Positions 28,073 to 60,487 of a stretch of DNA of 64,000 nt are shown one piece after another (positions within the stretch are counted from its first letter, which is position 1; each line of letters starts with the position of its first letter). The notes beneath the pieces are model-generated. The model saw only the letters and a list, made by a program, of their open reading frames with translations, was not told the origin of the DNA and made no database searches. The position numbers and the translations under genes were made by a program. The stretch covers positions 1-64,000 of the forward strand of contig JAJDCZ010000005.1 of the NCBI GenBank assembly GCA_029260555.1, given 5' to 3'. The stretch comes from Phycisphaerales bacterium. Its GTDB lineage: Bacteria; Planctomycetota; Phycisphaerae; Phycisphaerales; UBA1924.

Positions 28073-28921
28073 ATGTCCAACCGAAAAAAATCGGCGTTTA
28101 CACTGATCGAACTTCTGGTGGTCATCGCCATCATCGCGCTCCTTATTGCCATTTTGCTTCCCTCTCTTGGCAGCGCCCGTAATACTGCCAAGCAGGTTGT
28201 CTGCAGCTCGAACCTCAGACAAATGGGCATCGCCATGGCGGGATACACAAAGGACAATCAGGGATTCTTCCCGGGCGATCACTGGCAAGACCGAGGAACG
28301 CTCAATCTCTTTGCATGGCCCGGGCGGCTTCGCGTGTACATGGGCGACTCAACCGATGGATTCTGGTGCCCATCAACACTCAGCGATTTCAAGTGGGTCA
28401 AAACCTACAGAGACTCTGCTATTCCCAGCGGCACCGATGGTCAGGGATCCCCGACTCTCTTTGGTTATGAAGAGTTTGAAAGACCACTGCGAGGCACACG
28501 CCAGGATATGACCATCACCTATGGATACAACGGCTGGGGTGTCGGCGATATTCAAGGTGCTTGTGGAGGGATGTTCGGCCTCGGCGGGCATGTTGCATGG
28601 ACCAACCGCGACAACATGAATGAACGCCGACTGTGGGAGATTCCCCAGCACTGGGTTCAGCAGCCCAGCGATATGATCGCTCTGGCTGACAATACCGTGA
28701 ACTTTAACTGGGATGCCTGGATTACTCCCAAGACTCAGAACTGGCGAAACTGGCCCGGTGATCGCCACTTTGATGGCTCAAATGTGCTGTTCGTTGATGG
28801 TCATGCCAAGCACATGAAGCAAAAAGACCTTATTGATAACCCGGACCGCACCATTCAGGAACAGAAAAGGGCAAGAAGACGCTGGAACTTTGATTACGAC
28901 CCACGCCTTGAATGTCTGTAA
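28073..28921 (+). CDS. Prepilin-like secreted protein with N-terminal methylation motif
   Basis: 282 residues. GGAG lies 11 bases before the ATG. The N-terminus SAFTLIELLVVIAIIALLIAILLPSLG is the type IV/II pseudopilin signal, with cleavage expected before Phe and a Glu at +5. The body is a compact domain with WVKTYRD, YGYNGWG and a C-terminal DRHFDGSNVLFVDGHAKHM, the H-x9-DG-like ending seen in many planctomycete prepilin-like proteins. Such proteins are numerous in planctomycetes, and their role is unknown. A relative with the same signal is at 31.7-32.7 kb. Confidence 0.85.
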   Translation: MSNRKKSAFTLIELLVVIAIIALLIAILLPSLGSARNTAKQVVCSSNLRQMGIAMAGYTKDNQGFFPGDHWQDRGTLNLFAWPGRLRVYMGDSTDGFWCPSTLSDFKWVKTYRDSAIPSGTDGQGSPTLFGYEEFERPLRGTRQDMTITYGYNGWGVGDIQGACGGMFGLGGHVAWTNRDNMNERRLWEIPQHWVQQPSDMIALADNTVNFNWDAWITPKTQNWRNWPGDRHFDGSNVLFVDGHAKHMKQKDLIDNPDRTIQEQKRARRRWNFDYDPRLECL

Positions 28922-28957: not shown

Positions 28958-29320
28958 ATGACCCTCAAAAGTATCATTCAACTTCTTGTTGCGATTGCCC
29001 TGCTGGCAGCAGCGGGTGTTCTGGTGGCAAAGAATCTGGCCAAGTCATCCGGTACCAACTCTGACGGGCCGCCAAAGGAAATTCACTTTCAATGCGCTAC
29101 CGAATCATGCCAGGCGGTCTTTACGGTGCCTTTCAAGGATGTTCGGGCGTACGCTGAGAACTCTGAGGGGTCGTATCCCTGTCCCGAGTGTGGCAAACAC
29201 TTTACGCATGAGGTGTACAAGTGCAGCAACTGTGATGCTGCTCTGGAGCCAGTCGGGCACGGCGGGTTCCCTGAGGTCTGCCCAAGTTGTGGAGAGGCGA
29301 TTCGTCCACCCGGCGCCTGA
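28958..29320 (+). CDS. Small membrane-anchored zinc-ribbon protein
   Basis: 120 residues. One N-terminal membrane helix (QLLVAIALLAAAGVLV) is followed by a region with three pairs of cysteines: CATESC, CPECGKH and CSNCDA-x-CPSCGE. The last four Cys pairs are spaced as zinc knuckles, so the domain should bind one or two zinc ions. It starts 36 bases after the prepilin-like gene. No family name is certain and the function is unknown. Confidence 0.72.
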   Translation: MTLKSIIQLLVAIALLAAAGVLVAKNLAKSSGTNSDGPPKEIHFQCATESCQAVFTVPFKDVRAYAENSEGSYPCPECGKHFTHEVYKCSNCDAALEPVGHGGFPEVCPSCGEAIRPPGA

Positions 29321-31698: not shown

Positions 31699-32748
31699 TT
31701 AGCGTTGAATATCCCGGCCGTGAATGCCGTCCTTCGTAGCCCAGAAGAATGCGGGATAGAGCCCGCCATTCTCGGTCGTGCCGTTCTCAAGAAGGTCGCC
31801 TCTCATTTCATATCGTCCAAGAATGGAGTTATCGACATCCCACACATCCGTAGGCGTAAACGCATCACGCACGCTCTGCTTGGGTGATTGTGTCAATGCA
31901 GACACCTCGCTCATGTTCGCCCGGATCACGCTGCCATCGACCAGCCCAACATTGGTCTTGGCCTGTGGATTGTGCCAGGTTGGTGGAGCATCGCGTCTGC
32001 CGAGAACTTGAGGATTCCCCAGGATGGTCACTGTCTCAAGCCGACGGCGCTGTGATGTATCAAATCGCTCAAAGATGATGACTTTTTGCGTGGGATAGGT
32101 CACATCACTCTGCCTGTTACGGCGAAAACCCGCCTGATCAGGCTCTCGTGGATCAGCAGAGTTCCTGGGCGACTGGGCATACCGATTCGGGTTAAACCAG
32201 AATGTAGGCGAATAGAAATATGAAGTGTCCCAGATCACCCGATCCAGAGAGTATTGAGTGGAAAGTTCAAGGAATCGATCCTTGGGTGCTGCATCAGCCG
32301 GTGCAAACTGAACATCAGATGCGTAATCACCCGGTGAGATCCAGTCCGCGGTCTGGCTGTACCAGTGGGCTGCGTACATCTCGCTCTTCCACACTCCCGG
32401 ATCAGTAAAAGCAAAGCACTGTTCATCGTTTCTGGAGATGCGCCACCAGGTGCCTTGATTGCAGAGGTTGGTTCCTCTGCCAAAGGGATTGACAAAAGAG
32501 TCATCATGCTCTCCACCATACAGGATCTGCACCTGCGTCAGAGATTTGATATTCGACAGGCTCACGGTGTTTTGAGCTGCGAGTCTGGCTTCACCCAGAG
32601 ATGGAAGCAGAATCCCAATAAGCAGTGCGATGATCGCAATGACGACCAACAGCTCAATGAGCGTAAAGCCCCGGCCGGGATTGCTGCTTCTCAGCTTCAA
32701 CCTGCTCCACCGGCTTACACCGTTGTCGTTTGTATTCAGACGATTCAT
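31699..32748 (-). CDS. Prepilin-like secreted protein with N-terminal methylation motif
   Basis: 349 residues from the ATG at 32748, five bases after GGAGG. A start three bases upstream is too near the site, and the frame reaches 32838 without support. The N-terminal region SRWSRLKLRSSNPGRGFTLIELLVVIAIIALLIGILLPSLG is the pseudopilin signal. The mature domain has ILYGGEHDDSFVNPFGRGT and the later DAPPTWHNPQAKTNVGLVDGSV, again the H...DG ending of the planctomycete prepilin-like proteins. The long basic leader peptide before the helix is atypical. It has the same signal as the protein at 28.1-28.9 kb but little other similarity. Confidence 0.85.
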   Translation of the reverse strand: MNRLNTNDNGVSRWSRLKLRSSNPGRGFTLIELLVVIAIIALLIGILLPSLGEARLAAQNTVSLSNIKSLTQVQILYGGEHDDSFVNPFGRGTNLCNQGTWWRISRNDEQCFAFTDPGVWKSEMYAAHWYSQTADWISPGDYASDVQFAPADAAPKDRFLELSTQYSLDRVIWDTSYFYSPTFWFNPNRYAQSPRNSADPREPDQAGFRRNRQSDVTYPTQKVIIFERFDTSQRRRLETVTILGNPQVLGRRDAPPTWHNPQAKTNVGLVDGSVIRANMSEVSALTQSPKQSVRDAFTPTDVWDVDNSILGRYEMRGDLLENGTTENGGLYPAFFWATKDGIHGRDIQR

Positions 32749-32957
32749 CATAGCCTCCAATTTCAAAGTTCTGTGTATGCTTTGCCCGCCCGCATCACAC
32801 AACACATGACACAGCACCTCGTTGCATGATTCTAACATCTATCCGTACTGACGGCAATTCTGATGCCAAAAATGGATCGATACCAGCGGAATCCTTTTTC
32901 TGCCTGCCGATAACTCAAAAAGACTGGCTCGATCAGCCTCATCTGGCGGGTTCCTGA

Positions 32958-48898: not shown

Positions 48899-50476
48899 TC
48901 ACTCGCTCTTGTACGATGCCCTGAAGTTTTCCAAAGCCTCGATGAGCTTGGCTTCCAAATCTGCATCAAGCGCTCGCTTGTCGTTCAACCCGTCCCACAC
49001 TGGCTTTCCTGATGTCTGGAAATACTCGAGCATCGCCTTCTCATACGCAGGCACTTGCTCACGAGAAACATGGTCCAGATAGCCCTTGGTACCCGCATAG
49101 ATCGAAATGATCTGATCCGTCACCGTCTGAGGCACATACTGTGGCTGCTTGAGAAGCTCCACCATCCTCGCACCACGATCAAGCTGAGCCTGCGTCGCCT
49201 TGTCAAGCTCTGTACCAAGCTGGGCAAACGCTTCAAGCTCGCGATAGGCTGCCAGGTCAAGCCTGAGCGAACCAGCGATCTTCTTCATGGCTTTGACCTG
49301 GGCATTACCACCCACGCGGGATACTGAAATACCCACATTAATCGCAGGCCTCACACCTGAGAAGAAAAGCTCAGGCTCCAGATATATCTGGCCATCGGTA
49401 ATCGAAATCACATTCGTCGGAATGTAGGCTGACACATCGCCTTCTTGTGTCTCAATCACAGGCAGTGCTGTGAGCGATCCGCCACCGTTGTCATCAGACA
49501 ACTTCGTCGCCCTCTCGAGCAGGCGGCTATGCAGATAAAACACATCGCCCGGATACGCTTCACGACCCGGAGGACGACGCAACAGCAGCGAAAGCTGACG
49601 ATACGCCACCGCCTGCTTGGAAAGATCGTCATAAATGCAGAGTGCGTGCTTGGGATAAGGCTTGCCATCGCTCAGCGTCTTGCCCTCTTCCTTGCCCGTC
49701 CACATGAAGTGCTCGCCCATGGCACAACCCGAATACGGCGCAATGTACTGAATCGGTGCAGGCTCAGAACTCGAAGCATCAACCACGATCGTGTAATCCA
49801 TCGCCCCATGCTCACGAAGCGTCTCTACAACACCCGCGACCGTCGAGTCCTTCTGACCCACAGCAACATAAATACAAACCACTGCCTCATCAGTACCCCA
49901 GTACTGCTTCTGATTGATGATCGTGTCGATGGCAATCGCGGTCTTTCCCGTCTTGCGGTCGCCGATGATCAACTCTCGCTGACCACGACCAATAGGAATC
50001 ATCGCATCAATCGGTTTGATCCCCGTCTGCAAAGGCTGCGTCACAGGCTGACGATCCGCAATGCCCGGCGCGATGATGTCGACTTTGCGAACCTGCTCGT
50101 TGGAAAGTGCAGGGCCATTATCCAGAGGCCGACCCAGTGAATCCACAACGCGGCCCAGCATCTGCTCGCCCACAGGCACCTCAAGCAGACGCCCGGTAGA
50201 CTTGACAAGATCGCCTTCCTTCACCGCAAGGTAATCGCCATAGATCACCGCACCGACCGTGTCGGTTTCCAGGTTCATCACCTGACCCATAATCGAGCCT
50301 TTGGATGTCTGGAAATCCAGCAGTTCGCCAGCCATGGCCTTTGCCAAGCCATAGATCCGAGCGATACCATCGCCAATCTCCACCACCCGGCCGACCTCGG
50401 AAACCTCAAGCTCCGAAGCGTACTGCTCGATCTCCTGCTTGATCACATTGATGATCTCGTCAGTCTTAATCTTCAC
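48899..50476 (-). CDS. atpA: F0F1 ATP synthase subunit alpha
   Basis: 525 residues from the GTG at 50476 ([20 protein letters not shown]). The frame is open to 50647, but those residues are not family-like. Subunit alpha holds the non-catalytic nucleotide sites of F1. Walker A GDRKTGKT is at 172-179, and the signature [13 protein letters not shown] is present. Compared with E. coli there is an insertion of about 14 residues in CAMGEHF...[13 protein letters not shown], with the extra [16 protein letters not shown]. No other atp genes flank it; atpG lies at 59.6 kb on the other strand. It may be cotranscribed after cdaA-cdaR. Length is close to the usual 500-515. Confidence 0.97.
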
Positions 50477-50736
50477 GCCTTTGACCTTTCCTGCTGAAAA
50501 CAATGTCCGCCAGTGCCTCTGGCTGACAGCTTGATCAATCACAATCCGCCGCCCCGGACCCATGCCCAGTTCTGGCTCATTTTGCCCGCTCACTGCGGAC
50601 CCAAAGAATAGCGACCCCACCGCCACCTTTCCGCCCCCCAATGCCACACATTCACCCTTTTTGACTCACCCCACCTTCACTCCCCCCCGCCGCCCCTCTT
50701 CTACCCCCCTCCAACCCCCAACCCAAACCCATAGCC
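50477..50736 (-). other. Spacer between cdaR and atpA with guanine-run tracts
   Basis: 260 bases, no gene. On the minus strand, which is the mRNA sense for both flanking genes, it contains repeated G-runs: about 50676-50735 has GGGTTTGGGTTGGGGG then GGAGGGGGG, and 50605-50645 has further GGGG runs. Four or more runs with short loops allow quadruplex folding. The atpA ribosome-binding site (AAAGG/GGAAAGG near 50480) lies at the end of this tract. Confidence 0.5.
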
Positions 50737-56793: not shown

Positions 56794-57642
56794 ATGCGAT
56801 TGACTTTCCTAGGCACAGGGACCAGTTCGGGGGTGCCTGCCATTGGGTGTGAGTGCGCGGTGTGCCAGTCGGATGATCCACGGGACCAAAGGCTTCGGAC
56901 CAGTGCAGTACTTCAATATATGGATCGGCAGAAAAAGCCTCGGACGATTCTGCTGGATGCAGGTCCTGATCTGCGTGAGCAAGCTCTGGCAGCGGGACTG
57001 AACCGGTGCGATGCGATCTTTTTTACACACAATCATGTGGATCACACCTTTGGGCTTGACGAAGTGCGCCGATTTAATGTGCTGATGGACGAGCCGATTG
57101 ATATCTTTGCAAACAAACGCACAATGGAGCATCTTCAGCGGGTCTACAAGCATATTTTCGATCAATACAACAATGTCAACAAGAGCTTTGTTGCGACGCT
57201 GATCCCCCATGAGGTTCAGCCCATGCAGCCTGTGCAGCTGCACGACATGAAACTGACACCGATTCCGTTGTTGCATGGGAGGCTTGAGATTCTGGGCTAT
57301 CGCATCGAGCCATTGCAGGCATTTGCTCAGGAAACTGATCAGGATGGGTCTATTTTCCCGCTGGCGTATTGCACGGATGTGTCCGCGATCCCCAGCGAGA
57401 GCTGGTCGATGCTCAAGGGATTGAGCACGCTGGTGCTTGATGCCTTGCGATTTCGGCATCATCCAACGCATATGACGGTGGACCGGGCGGTTGAGGTGGC
57501 CCAGCGCGTGGGTGCAAAGCAGACCTGGTTTGTGCATATGGCCCACGCCATCAGCCATGCTGAGGTTGATGCGTCGCTGCCCGAAGGGATCAAACTGGCC
57601 TATGACGGGCTGACGATCGGGGATCAAGAGAAAATCGATTAA
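56794..57642 (+). CDS. MBL-fold hydrolase, PhnP-like
   Basis: 282 residues. Metal site HxHxDH is in FFTHNHVDHTFGLDE (79-84). The N-terminal IGCECAVCQSDDPRDQR gives the extra zinc ligands typical of PhnP and related phosphodiesterases. YCTDVSAIP holds the later Asp ligand. PhnP cuts cyclic ribosyl phosphate in phosphonate use, but no other phn gene is present, and this family also occurs as general cyclic phosphodiesterases. Its stop codon overlaps the stop of the next gene on the other strand by 3 bases. Confidence 0.85.
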   Translation: MRLTFLGTGTSSGVPAIGCECAVCQSDDPRDQRLRTSAVLQYMDRQKKPRTILLDAGPDLREQALAAGLNRCDAIFFTHNHVDHTFGLDEVRRFNVLMDEPIDIFANKRTMEHLQRVYKHIFDQYNNVNKSFVATLIPHEVQPMQPVQLHDMKLTPIPLLHGRLEILGYRIEPLQAFAQETDQDGSIFPLAYCTDVSAIPSESWSMLKGLSTLVLDALRFRHHPTHMTVDRAVEVAQRVGAKQTWFVHMAHAISHAEVDASLPEGIKLAYDGLTIGDQEKID

Positions 57643-58484
57643 AGAAGTGGCAGAGGTGCCATTCCCGCAGATCCAGAAACAAGAAGGGAATATGGCAGCC
57701 ACTGGTTGATTTCATGGTCATAATAAAAACTGAATCGAACCGCACTCTTTGAGCCTTGGGAATACTGCACAGCAAACATTATCCACACGGTATCTGAATC
57801 AGAAATTTGATCGGCTTTGTCCGGGGTTGGATATCCCAGTGGAGGCACAAACATGCTCACGGCTCCAGCCCAACTGTGATGTGGCCAGTTGATTCCAGAT
57901 TGTGCAGTCAAGCCATGGCCAATCTGAATCGAAGCGACATTTACCTTGTCCCATTCAACACGCCTTCGTTTTGCCTGCTCCCAGAGCAAACCTGACTTAT
58001 CTTTAACGCTGAGGACACTAAAATCTTTTGGAATCACGCCTTTGAAATTGTCATACAATGCGTATTGATCTGCCCGGTTGCTGGCCATATCTCCAAGAAG
58101 GCATCCCTTTATAGTCATCAACTGGTAGTAAGGTTCAAACTGATTCATCGCCTGGCTGAATAAGACTACTTCCAGATCATCCCAAAGGCTGTCCAATAGG
58201 CTCTGGTCTGTTCGAAGTGCTTTTTTTGCTTTGTCAGAAGCGATATCAACAATAACATTGACCAGCCTGGACACTGATTTCTCATCTTTGCGAACGACCT
58301 GAATCCAAGCAGCGTTCGCTTCATTCAGACCATACTGGAGTTTCAGATCAGTATCGTCATTGTCTTTGCTCGTTTGTTCGGAAGAAGTCTTTGTGGGGGG
58401 ATCCTTCCAAACGCTGCCAGAAGTGATCGAAGAATATACGCACACAGCGCAAATATCCGAAACTATACACATACGCAGGGCCAT
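57639..58484 (-). CDS. Putative secreted partner of the cysteine-rich protein
   Basis: 281 residues from the ATG at 58484, which has GGAGGA 10 bases upstream. The frame is open to 58613. The N-terminus MALRMCIVSDICAVCVYSSITSGS looks like a signal peptide. The mature part is largely helical at first (DDTDLKLQYGLNEANAAWIQVVRKDEKSVSRL), then beta-rich with DSDTVWIMFAVQYSQGSKSAVRFSFYYDHEINQW. No family is recognised. The gene begins 4 bases after the stop of the upstream cysteine-rich gene, so both are coupled. The DNA is AT-rich. Confidence 0.62.
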   Translation of the reverse strand: MALRMCIVSDICAVCVYSSITSGSVWKDPPTKTSSEQTSKDNDDTDLKLQYGLNEANAAWIQVVRKDEKSVSRLVNVIVDIASDKAKKALRTDQSLLDSLWDDLEVVLFSQAMNQFEPYYQLMTIKGCLLGDMASNRADQYALYDNFKGVIPKDFSVLSVKDKSGLLWEQAKRRRVEWDKVNVASIQIGHGLTAQSGINWPHHSWAGAVSMFVPPLGYPTPDKADQISDSDTVWIMFAVQYSQGSKSAVRFSFYYDHEINQWLPYSLLVSGSAGMAPLPLL

Positions 58485-58488
58485 TGAA

Positions 58489-58836
58489 TTAGCTTCCTCC
58501 ATTCTCAACGCATGCATACATTGGTGGATATACCCAAAAATTTGTTTCACAATGTGATCCGGGATTACAACAAGTTCCCTGCCCAGAACCAGTACTGCAG
58601 TATATGTACCCACAACAAGTTTGGTTCCCGTAACATTGCATCAATGTCTTGAAAACTGGGCCACATGTTGCTCCACACCAGAATGATCCTCCGGGAACAT
58701 GGCTCTCAGCAACCAGTTCGATTGGAACTTCCGTTGGATCTGGCGATGGCGGGTTCGCTTCAACGAGTGTATTTTGTGCTCCAAAACCAACTGAAAGCAT
58801 AATCAACAAAGATGCACATGAAATTGAACCTACCAT
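58489..58836 (-). CDS. Cysteine-rich secreted peptide
   Basis: 115 residues from the ATG at 58836, which has AAAGGAG nine bases upstream. The frame is open to 58890. Signal peptide MVGSISCASLLIMLSVGFGA. After an acidic/proline-rich linker come ten Cys in about 60 residues with spacing C-x3-C-x9-C-x5-CC-x4-C-x8-CC-x5-C-x12-C. Two CC pairs suggest a disulfide-rich fold, but the pattern matches no family I know. Co-oriented with the partner at 57639. The region is AT-rich, and foreign origin is possible. Confidence 0.68.
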   Translation of the reverse strand: MVGSISCASLLIMLSVGFGAQNTLVEANPPSPDPTEVPIELVAESHVPGGSFWCGATCGPVFKTLMQCYGNQTCCGYIYCSTGSGQGTCCNPGSHCETNFWVYPPMYACVENGGS

Positions 58837-59611
58837 AACGATTGACTCCTTTAAAACAGTGAAATGCCTTTTTAAACACTCTATGTACAACCTACCCCCC
58901 TCCCCCTATCCATCTGTCAAGGCTTTTTTGTCTATTTTGGCATTTTTATTGGACATATTTGTCTTGCCCTTGCTAATGGGGTCATTCTGATCAACTGGAT
59001 GTATCTCAAAGTGGCTGGACATCCTCTCAATGAAATAGCCTTTGATTCAAGAGTTGGTTTTGATCGGACTTATGGAATAAATCGAGTACAAAATCCGTTT
59101 TGACACAGTTAGTAGACTTTGTACGAACCGCAAGCAGCAAGAATGCGAAGACAGATTAAAGTAAAGGCGAGTGATCGGTCGAATGAACTGCTCGCCTGTT
59201 CCCACAAACGAGGAACAAAGGGGGCCACTATGGCACACGACACGCACGACGCAGCGGCTGAGGAAATCCAGGTCACCGGACTCGCATCAGCGTTTCCCAT
59301 GTCTCCCGCGGGAGAGGTACCCAGCACATTACCCGGCAGGGTAGAGGATTCACACGGCCCCAAGCCTGCGGGCTCAACGCATACCTCAGGTCAGCATAAA
59401 ACTGCGTCCGCGTAGGTTATCTGTGTCTGACAGAGCAGCAAGACTTGCGCATCTGCCTGTTTTATGCCTGAGCACTTTGGCTGATCGCGCATTGAGTCTG
59501 GTCTTGCATTGGGTCCATTCACTTAATTGGTGCTGATTGGGCTTTGAAAGGTGAGGTTTTCGCTGCTTGTTGAGCACACATCTGGCTGTGGTGAGCCTAG
59601 ACTCGTGCCCT
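58837..59611. other. 775-base gap between the cysteine-rich gene and atpG
   Basis: The left half (to about 59110) is AT-rich without a good open frame. A perfect 7-base stem (AGGCGAG 59165-59171 with CTCGCCT 59191-59197) could form a hairpin before a possible small ORF at 59230. The right half carries the promoter for atpG. No known RNA family was recognised here. It is more likely a relic or an unrecognised small-RNA locus than empty spacer, but this is an inference. Confidence 0.45.
59230..59415 (+). CDS. Possible small protein
   Basis: 61 codons from ATG with a G-run (AGGGGG) about 6 bases upstream. It reads MAHDTHDAAAEEIQVTGLASAFPMSPAG..., a soluble, low-complexity peptide with no signal or membrane helix. 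Codon third-position bias is weak. It may be spurious. Confidence 0.25.
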   Translation: MAHDTHDAAAEEIQVTGLASAFPMSPAGEVPSTLPGRVEDSHGPKPAGSTHTSGQHKTASA

Positions 59612-60487
59612 ATGGCTCAGACAAGAGATATCAAGAAGCGGATCAAGGCGGTTGGAAACATCAAACGCATCACGCGGACGATGCAGATGATCGCAACCAG
59701 CAAGTTTGCCAAGGCGGTTCAACGGGCCACCGAGACCAAGCCTTATACCGAAGGCGTGTTTCATCTGGTGACAGAACTTGCTGAAACTGCAGGTGATATC
59801 ACGCATCCACTCATCACGGGGACAGATTCCAAGGATGCAAAGGATCTGACGCTGGTGATGTGCTCTGACCGTGGACTTTGTGGTCCATACAACGGCACAA
59901 TTTTGCGCCTTGCTCTTTCAAAGCTGAAAAATGCTGATCCTGAGCACTCGCTTATCGATCTGGTGGGCAAGAAAGGCGCTTCGTTTTTGAAGTTCAATGG
60001 CGTGCATGTTGACGAGCACCACCAGCAGTTTGGTGACAAGCCTGAAGTTGATGATGTTGATCGGCTGGCGCAGAGCTACATGGATCGATTCATTGCTGGC
60101 GAGCTGGCATCAGTTCGGGTGATCTACATGCGATTTGTTTCGGCCGGCCGCCAGGAGCCGGAGGTGATGCAGCTTTTGCCCCTGAAACCACCAGCAGCAA
60201 AAGAGTCGCAAGAAAGCACAGGCTCAGCGGTGCTATATGAGTTCAGCCCCGAGATTGATGAACTGCTCGATGAACTTCTCCCTGCAGCTGTTCGGGCGAC
60301 GCTGTTCCAGTGTTTTAACGATGCGGTGGTTTCTGAGCACATCGCCCGCATGGTGGCGATGAAGGCAGCGACGGACAACGCGGGCAAGATGGGGACGAGC
60401 CTCAAGCGCAAGTTCAATCGCGCCCGTCAGAGCCAGATTACCACAGAGTTGACCGAGATCATCTCCGGTGCTGCAGCTCTGGAATAG
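59612..60487 (+). CDS. atpG: F0F1 ATP synthase subunit gamma
   Basis: 291 residues from the ATG at 59612 ([32 protein letters not shown]), the correct family start. A longer frame to 59567 is not typical. Subunit gamma is the rotating shaft of F1. Family motifs are the N-terminal coiled helix, [17 protein letters not shown] and the C-terminal [38 protein letters not shown]. An insertion near [16 protein letters not shown] is longer than in E. coli. None of the other atp genes is beside it; atpA is 9 kb away on the opposite strand. Confidence 0.96.
   Translation: [291 protein letters not shown]

What the first reader, a model, noticed from the sequence alone, without database searches (positions are those of the whole stretch)
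57639..58836. Two-gene unit: ten-cysteine secreted peptide plus secreted partner
The peptide (58489-58836) has a clear signal sequence and a dense, unusual cysteine pattern with two CC pairs. The next gene starts 4 bases after it and has its own signal. The region is AT-rich, unlike the genes around it, and both starts have strong ribosome-binding sites. Such features are typical of secreted toxins, inhibitors or surface binders. I recognise neither protein.
Basis: partly seen in the sequence, partly recalled or inferred. Interest (0 to 1): 0.55.

Follow-up and report, generated by a model that had tools for sequence, protein, structure and literature searches.

The report
Cysteine-rich exported peptide gene pair
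Two neighbouring genes encode a small, apparently exported peptide dense in cysteine pairs and a companion protein; relatives suggest they belong to an undescribed kind of gene set that links such peptides to a disulfide-related membrane protein and a pilus-like protein.

Summary
The pair is real. The peptide (58489-58836, minus strand) has ten cysteines after its signal region, in the stated pattern; the partner starts 4 bases later. It is the most AT-rich stretch of the window. No Pfam or NCBIfam match is significant.

Relatives explain more than the window does. Peptide and partner lie next to each other in 11 genomes of one family; 9 of 10 cysteines are invariant over nine aligned sequences. 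In 7 of the 11 a MauE-family membrane protein lies upstream; G038 has a compact operon pseudopilin-MauE-peptide-partner. MauE has been proposed to help form disulfides in methylamine dehydrogenase. MauE runs from 1 to 17 copies per genome in this family. Of 68 MauE loci examined (of 119 found in 18 genomes), 47 have a cysteine-rich secreted-type ORF within 2.3 kb on the same strand, 1 on the opposite strand; arbitrary anchors give 4.5%. 21 of the 68 are fused to a pilin.

Best reading: a reduced copy of a module that exports, oxidatively folds and presents or releases disulfide-rich peptides. The window locus has neither MauE nor pilin; this genome's single MauE lies elsewhere. Target and activity are unknown; a toxin role is neither supported nor excluded.

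The parts
58489..58836 (-). Cysteine-rich exported-type peptide, 115 aa, C-x3-C-x9-C-x5-CC-x4-C-x8-CC-x5-C-x12-C after the signal region
57639..58484 (-). Partner protein, 281 aa, family without Pfam match; weak N-terminal signal or anchor
58846..58852 (-). Likely ribosome-binding site of the peptide (AAAGGAG)
   Evidence: read
58495..58500 (-). Likely ribosome-binding site of the partner (GGAGGA), inside the end of the peptide gene
   Evidence: read

Best explanation
The pair is a reduced, locally two-gene copy of a dispersed module found in this family of Phycisphaerae-type bacteria: pseudopilin + MauE + cysteine-rich exported peptide + membrane-anchored exported partner. Shown: the gene linkage in relatives, the conserved cysteine pattern, and the recurrence of MauE with cysteine-rich secreted-type ORFs of several kinds. 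Inferred: the peptide leaves through Sec, loses its signal, and its ten cysteines are oxidised to a compact beta-rich, disulfide-locked domain. In most relatives the neighbouring MauE would assist, as MauE is proposed to do for the methylamine dehydrogenase beta subunit; in this genome a VKOR-DsbA-type protein or the single unlinked MauE would do it. The partner, held at the membrane, probably escorts or holds the peptide, and where a pseudopilin is present a pilus-like apparatus probably presents or pushes out the product. The product would act at or beyond the cell surface, for example in binding or attachment.
For: Peptide and partner are neighbours in 11 genomes (G000, G064, G115, G073, G008, G009, G007, G114, G150, G038, G066); G038 and G066 were seeds of neither profile and were found by both. 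MauE (PF07291) lies upstream in 7 of 11. G038 has overlapping pilin-MauE-peptide-partner genes, N_methyl 21.6 bits against a cut-off of 21.2 and MauE E=3e-14. 47 of 68 MauE loci have a Cys-rich secreted-type ORF within 2.3 kb on the same strand, 1 of 68 on the opposite strand; without the 7 loci fetched because of the pair, 40 of 61 (my count). 42 of 68 have a pilin fused or within 3 kb on the same strand, 10 of 68 on the opposite strand. Arbitrary anchors in three of the genomes: 54 of 1200 and 27 of 1200. 18 of 27 partner loci have a Cys-rich ORF upstream, 21 of 27 have MauE and/or a pilin within 3 kb. The own genome has DSBA matches over the cut-off and a VKOR match under it, each in a 626-aa open frame on contig C43.
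Against: The window locus has neither MauE nor pilin beside it, and this genome's only MauE lies in another, ordinary-looking locus. 9 of 27 partner loci show no Cys-rich ORF by my filter, among them G123, a strong partner match. Of the 11 pair loci only G038 has both pilin and MauE; the other 6 with MauE have no pilin within 3 kb of what was held. A cruder pilin motif search gave 29 of 68 loci and no significant association of pilin with the Cys-rich ORF (Fisher p 0.18). 21 of 68 MauE loci have no Cys-rich ORF. Nothing shows disulfides, secretion or a MauE role here. The peptide model matches no solved fold and the five models vary (pLDDT 44-71).
Confidence: 0.58

Rival explanations
1. Antagonism: the peptide is a disulfide-rich toxin or bacteriocin-like effector, the partner its carrier or immunity protein, and the many different peptides of one genome are an arsenal.
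For: Small, secreted-type, cysteine-dense, diverse (55 peptides in many clusters); low GC in 7 of 8 relatives checked and patchy distribution; weak chance-level resemblance to defensins and a spider neurotoxin in cysteine spacing (E 0.15-0.9).
Against: No significant toxin match. The linked genes are a pilin and MauE; nothing seen marks the partner as immunity. No activity tested.
Confidence: 0.15
2. Metal handling: like bufferins, the exported cysteines bind copper or another metal, with a DoxX/MauE-type protein in the cluster.
For: DoxX genes are core parts of bufferin clusters (passages of PMC12452194); this genome's MauE matches the HvfX family weakly (E 3.2e-5, 24.2 bits against a cut-off of 80).
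Against: No bufferin signature in Pfam or NCBIfam for 51 peptides; pilin linkage; adjacent CC pairs and a predicted beta fold suit disulfides. MNIO genes were not searched for.
Confidence: 0.12
3. A relic: the window copy has lost its MauE and pilin and is decaying, so it has no present function.
For: No MauE or pilin at the locus, weak partner signal, low GC.
Against: Both frames are open, all ten cysteines and both ribosome-binding sites are intact; the G114 and G150 pairs also lack a MauE beside them (the G114 contig is only 4.3 kb).
Confidence: 0.12

Closest known systems
MauE and the methylamine dehydrogenase small (beta) subunit
   Same: A MauE-family membrane protein beside an exported, cysteine-dense small protein; MauE has been speculated to act in disulfide formation of the beta subunit (passage of PMC7794033).
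   Different: No Pfam match for any of 51 peptides; pilins and a new partner family instead. Other mau genes were not searched for.
Bufferins and other exported MNIO-modified RiPPs (PMC12452194, passages)
   Same: Signal peptide, conserved cysteines, DoxX-superfamily gene in the cluster.
   Different: No precursor signature matched; pilin linkage and CC pairs; MNIO genes not tested.
MauE-containing candidate RiPP families of Streptomyces (decRiPPter, PMC7794033, passages)
   Same: mauE homologues beside putative peptide precursors in genomes where the authors found no other mau orthologues.
   Different: Another phylum; no sequence relation tested; no pilin mentioned in the passages seen.
Expanded prepilin-motif (SBP_bac_10) proteins of Planctomycetales (PMC8567305, passages)
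   Same: Many prepilin-motif genes spread over the genome, often flanked by genes with signal peptides.
   Different: Another order; MauE and Cys-rich peptides beside them are not described in the passages seen.

Membership tests
Pseudopilin-MauE-peptide-partner module (described here) | Cys-rich exported-type peptide followed by a partner of the A2 family | tested here: met
   Window pair and 10 further genomes
Pseudopilin-MauE-peptide-partner module (described here) | MauE beside the pair | tested here: not met
   Absent at the window locus; present in 7 of 11 pair loci
Pseudopilin-MauE-peptide-partner module (described here) | Pseudopilin beside the pair | tested here: not met
   Absent at the window locus; the window's two pilin ORFs are about 25-29 kb away. 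Present directly upstream in G038 and G066
Methylamine dehydrogenase light chain (PF02975, accession recalled) | Match to the Pfam family | tested here: not met
   No Pfam family for the window peptide at E up to 10, none for 51 peptides at 0.01
Methylamine dehydrogenase light chain (PF02975, accession recalled) | Other mau genes in the cluster | not tested
   Not searched for
Bufferins | Bufferin precursor signature | tested here: not met
   whether the newer Buf2 and EGKCG signatures of PMC12452194 are in these libraries was not checked
Bufferins | MNIO (DUF692) gene in the cluster | not tested
   No DUF692 search was made
Known disulfide-rich toxins or defensins | Significant sequence or fold match | tested here: not met
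   Best PDB profile E 0.15; Foldseek none at E <= 0.001; VIA-align none with Z >= 2 among 231 chains
Exported disulfide-folded peptide | Disulfides in the mature protein | not testable with these tools
   Inferred from conserved cysteines and MauE linkage

The most novel reading that the evidence does not exclude
The pair belongs to a new kind of bacterial surface system: a genome-wide repertoire of locus-specific sets, each pairing its own disulfide-rich exported peptide with a membrane-anchored holder, a dedicated MauE-type disulfide helper and a pseudopilin, in many cases with MauE and pilin fused in one protein, so that oxidative folding and pilus-like presentation of the peptide are coupled. 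The different peptides of one genome would be a diversified set of surface ligands or released effectors.
Probability: 0.38. Interest if true: 0.82.

Novelty: new variant of a known kind. Interest (0 to 1): 0.6.

Why it matters
If the reading holds, some bacteria of this group devote many loci to different disulfide-rich exported peptides, each with its own folding helper and pilus-like protein. MauE-pilin fusions would tie oxidative folding to a pilus-type apparatus, a link that my searches of the paper library did not find. It would give the multicopy MauE proteins of these bacteria a testable class of substrates, and supply new natural disulfide-rich scaffolds.

Tried and rejected
Pfam and NCBIfam scans of both proteins: nothing significant; the LafU hit of the partner (E 0.12) was taken as chance. 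PDB profile searches: defensin and spider-toxin hits (E 0.15-0.9) and a FAP12 hit for the partner (E 0.051) taken as chance. AlphaFold2 of the partner failed (pLDDT 32), so no fold search was made with it. Identity with the methylamine dehydrogenase light chain was rejected (no profile match). Peptide hits in G075, G106, G111, G095 and G068 were treated as probably spurious (weak, some with stops; no partner match there at that threshold); their regions were fetched but not studied further. A home-made gene caller missed the peptide and was dropped for plain ORF listing. A first pilin motif search gave 29 of 68 loci and no significant link with Cys-rich ORFs (Fisher p 0.18); a profile search then gave 42 of 68. 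I therefore rest the case on the peptide-MauE linkage. Two of the 50 peptides listed (7 cysteines each, spurious-looking) were left out of the 51-row alignment A5, which is not used as proof of homology. The clusters come from a tiny database and single linkage, so they are loose. Third genes beside other peptide types form at least one further family not matched by the partner profile. NVEALA peptides of Bacteroidetes came to mind as an analogue (recalled); one paper search gave nothing.

Full report
Observation. The unit is there as described. The peptide runs from 58836 down to 58489 on the minus strand, 115 residues; the partner from 58484 to 57639, 281 residues. AAAGGAG precedes the peptide ATG, and GGAGGA inside the peptide's last codons precedes the partner ATG (read). 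GC is 0.456 against 0.541 for the window, the lowest stretch of that size. In 7 of 8 relatives checked the pair is 6-14 points lower in GC than its flanks, in G150 it is not (only 1,390 and 1,893 bases of flank in G073 and G114). The own genome holds one copy of the peptide.

No known family. Pfam gives nothing for either protein at E up to 10, NCBIfam only a chance hit for the partner. Profiles of relatives give nothing significant among solved structures. The AlphaFold2 model of the peptide, from two sequences, has pLDDT 84-88 by block over residues 51-100 and six strands, but the five models vary (44-71) and no solved fold matches. The partner model is unusable.

Relatives of the pair. In 163 genomes of the same family, the own included, the partner matches 15 and the peptide 13. 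Profiles over 400 genomes of the order match 30 (partner) and 17 (peptide); matches outside the family are weak (best 2e-4 and 0.0017). In 294 genomes sampled from the phylum the partner matches 2, both of this family. One named record is a metagenome-assembled Phycisphaeraceae bacterium (JAHBWV010000001.1); its contig has the length of G064:C1, so I take them as the same. Peptide and partner are neighbours in 11 genomes, 275 bases apart in G114. G038 and G066 were seeds of neither profile and were found by both (partner 3.3e-16 and 8.5e-12; peptide 1.7e-5 and 7.5e-6). The G066 peptide is shorter and lacks the last cysteine.

The missing genes. In 7 of the 11 (G064, G115, G073, G008, G009, G007, G038) a MauE-family protein (PF07291) lies upstream of the peptide; in G009 it is read with one in-frame TGA. 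In G066 a pilin-motif protein lies upstream (N_methyl 18.3 bits, under the cut-off of 21.2). In G038 pilin, MauE, peptide and partner follow each other with overlapping ends; N_methyl is just over its cut-off (21.6) and MauE has E=3e-14. The window, G114 and G150 have no MauE beside the pair; the G114 contig is 4.3 kb, and G150 has a pilin about 2.2 kb downstream.

A wider pattern. MauE is found in 156 of 163 family genomes, 1 to 17 copies at E <= 1e-5; many have only 1 or 2. In 18 genomes one search lists 119 matches at E <= 0.001. I fetched 60 regions, mostly genome by genome; G008:C112 and G070:C41 were taken because a partner match lay nearby. With the regions this gave 70 MauE ORFs; two were dropped as second halves of split ORFs, leaving 68 loci. 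47 of 68 have a Cys-rich ORF with an N-terminal hydrophobic stretch within 2.3 kb on the same strand, 1 of 68 on the opposite strand. Without the 7 loci fetched for the pair itself it is 40 of 61 (my count). The filter gave 2 hits in 606 kb of reversed sequence and 4 in the 64-kb window, one of them the peptide. In 400 kb taken at round coordinates from G150, G009 and G022, 54 of 1200 anchors (4.5%) had such an ORF; one of these stretches held a further tandem module by chance (L180). A pilin is fused to MauE in 21 of 68 loci and fused or near on the same strand in 42 of 68; 10 of 68 have one on the opposite strand; arbitrary anchors 27 of 1200. An earlier motif search had given 29 of 68 and no significant pilin-peptide association (p 0.18).

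The ordinary MauE. In seven genomes (G000, G009, G064, G022, G008, G150, G115) one MauE sits with a DUF1573-like and a rhodanese-like gene (named by eye), and none of these seven loci has a Cys-rich ORF. The window's genome has only this MauE. It also has DSBA matches over the cut-off and a VKOR match under it, each reported in a 626-aa open frame on contig C43, so another route to disulfides is likely.

Limits. Of 27 partner loci examined (26 of the 40 rows, plus one in G106 found locally; 14 weaker or second rows were left out), 18 have a Cys-rich ORF upstream, here with a threshold of 6 cysteines, and 21 have MauE and/or a pilin within 3 kb. Of the 9 without a peptide, G008:C112 has a 50-aa Cys-rich ORF below the length filter and G118 starts at the contig edge; G123 has a strong partner and nothing cysteine-rich. 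The Cys-rich ORFs are diverse: 24 of 55 fall into one loose cluster with the window peptide, the rest into small clusters or singletons. None of 51 matches Pfam at 0.01; one has a weak NCBIfam match (E 0.0086).

Mechanism. Export through Sec, oxidation to a disulfide-locked beta domain and holding by a membrane-anchored partner are inferences from sequence and linkage. The MauE step rests on the proposal that MauE helps form disulfides of the methylamine dehydrogenase beta subunit (passage of PMC7794033); that paper also reports three candidate RiPP families of Streptomyces with mauE homologues. DoxX genes are core parts of bufferin clusters (passages of PMC12452194), whose peptides are said to chelate copper (abstract in the listing). 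Dispersed prepilin-motif genes, often flanked by genes with signal peptides, are reported in Planctomycetales (passages of PMC8567305). None of the passages seen describes the combination found here, and eight searches of the openly licensed library showed none in their listings.

Verdict. The pair is a reduced copy of an undescribed module around Cys-rich exported-type peptides. What it does outside the cell is open: surface presentation or release of a folded peptide is the best guess; a toxin is possible without positive evidence.

Noticed in passing
window 28073-28921 (+) and 28958-29320 (+): A pilin-motif ORF followed by a small exported-looking ORF with 8 cysteines, zinc-ribbon-like by eye.
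   Followed up: no
window 31699-32838 (-): A second pilin-motif ORF.
   Followed up: no
window 48899-50647 (-) and 59567-60487 (+): By eye the ATP synthase alpha and gamma subunit genes, on opposite strands and about 9 kb apart, with unrelated genes between them.
   Followed up: no
L180 (G022:C1:380001-400000): Two MauE-like ORFs, two Cys-rich peptides and pilins in tandem in an arbitrarily chosen stretch, not in the listed PF07291 matches of G022; copy numbers are probably underestimates.
   Followed up: no
L139 (G150:C1:1603000-1611500): Two nearly identical Cys-rich peptide genes about 1.5 kb apart, with near-identical pilins: a recent tandem duplication.
   Followed up: no
L098, L127, L104, L124, L121, L134: The gene after other peptide types ends in a hydrophobic stretch and a basic tail, like a C-terminal membrane anchor; two of three such proteins scanned had no Pfam match, one only a chance-level one.
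   Followed up: partly
G000:C43:15546-17186: VKOR-like and DSBA-like matches, each reported in a 626-aa open frame: probably one fused disulfide-forming enzyme.
   Followed up: no
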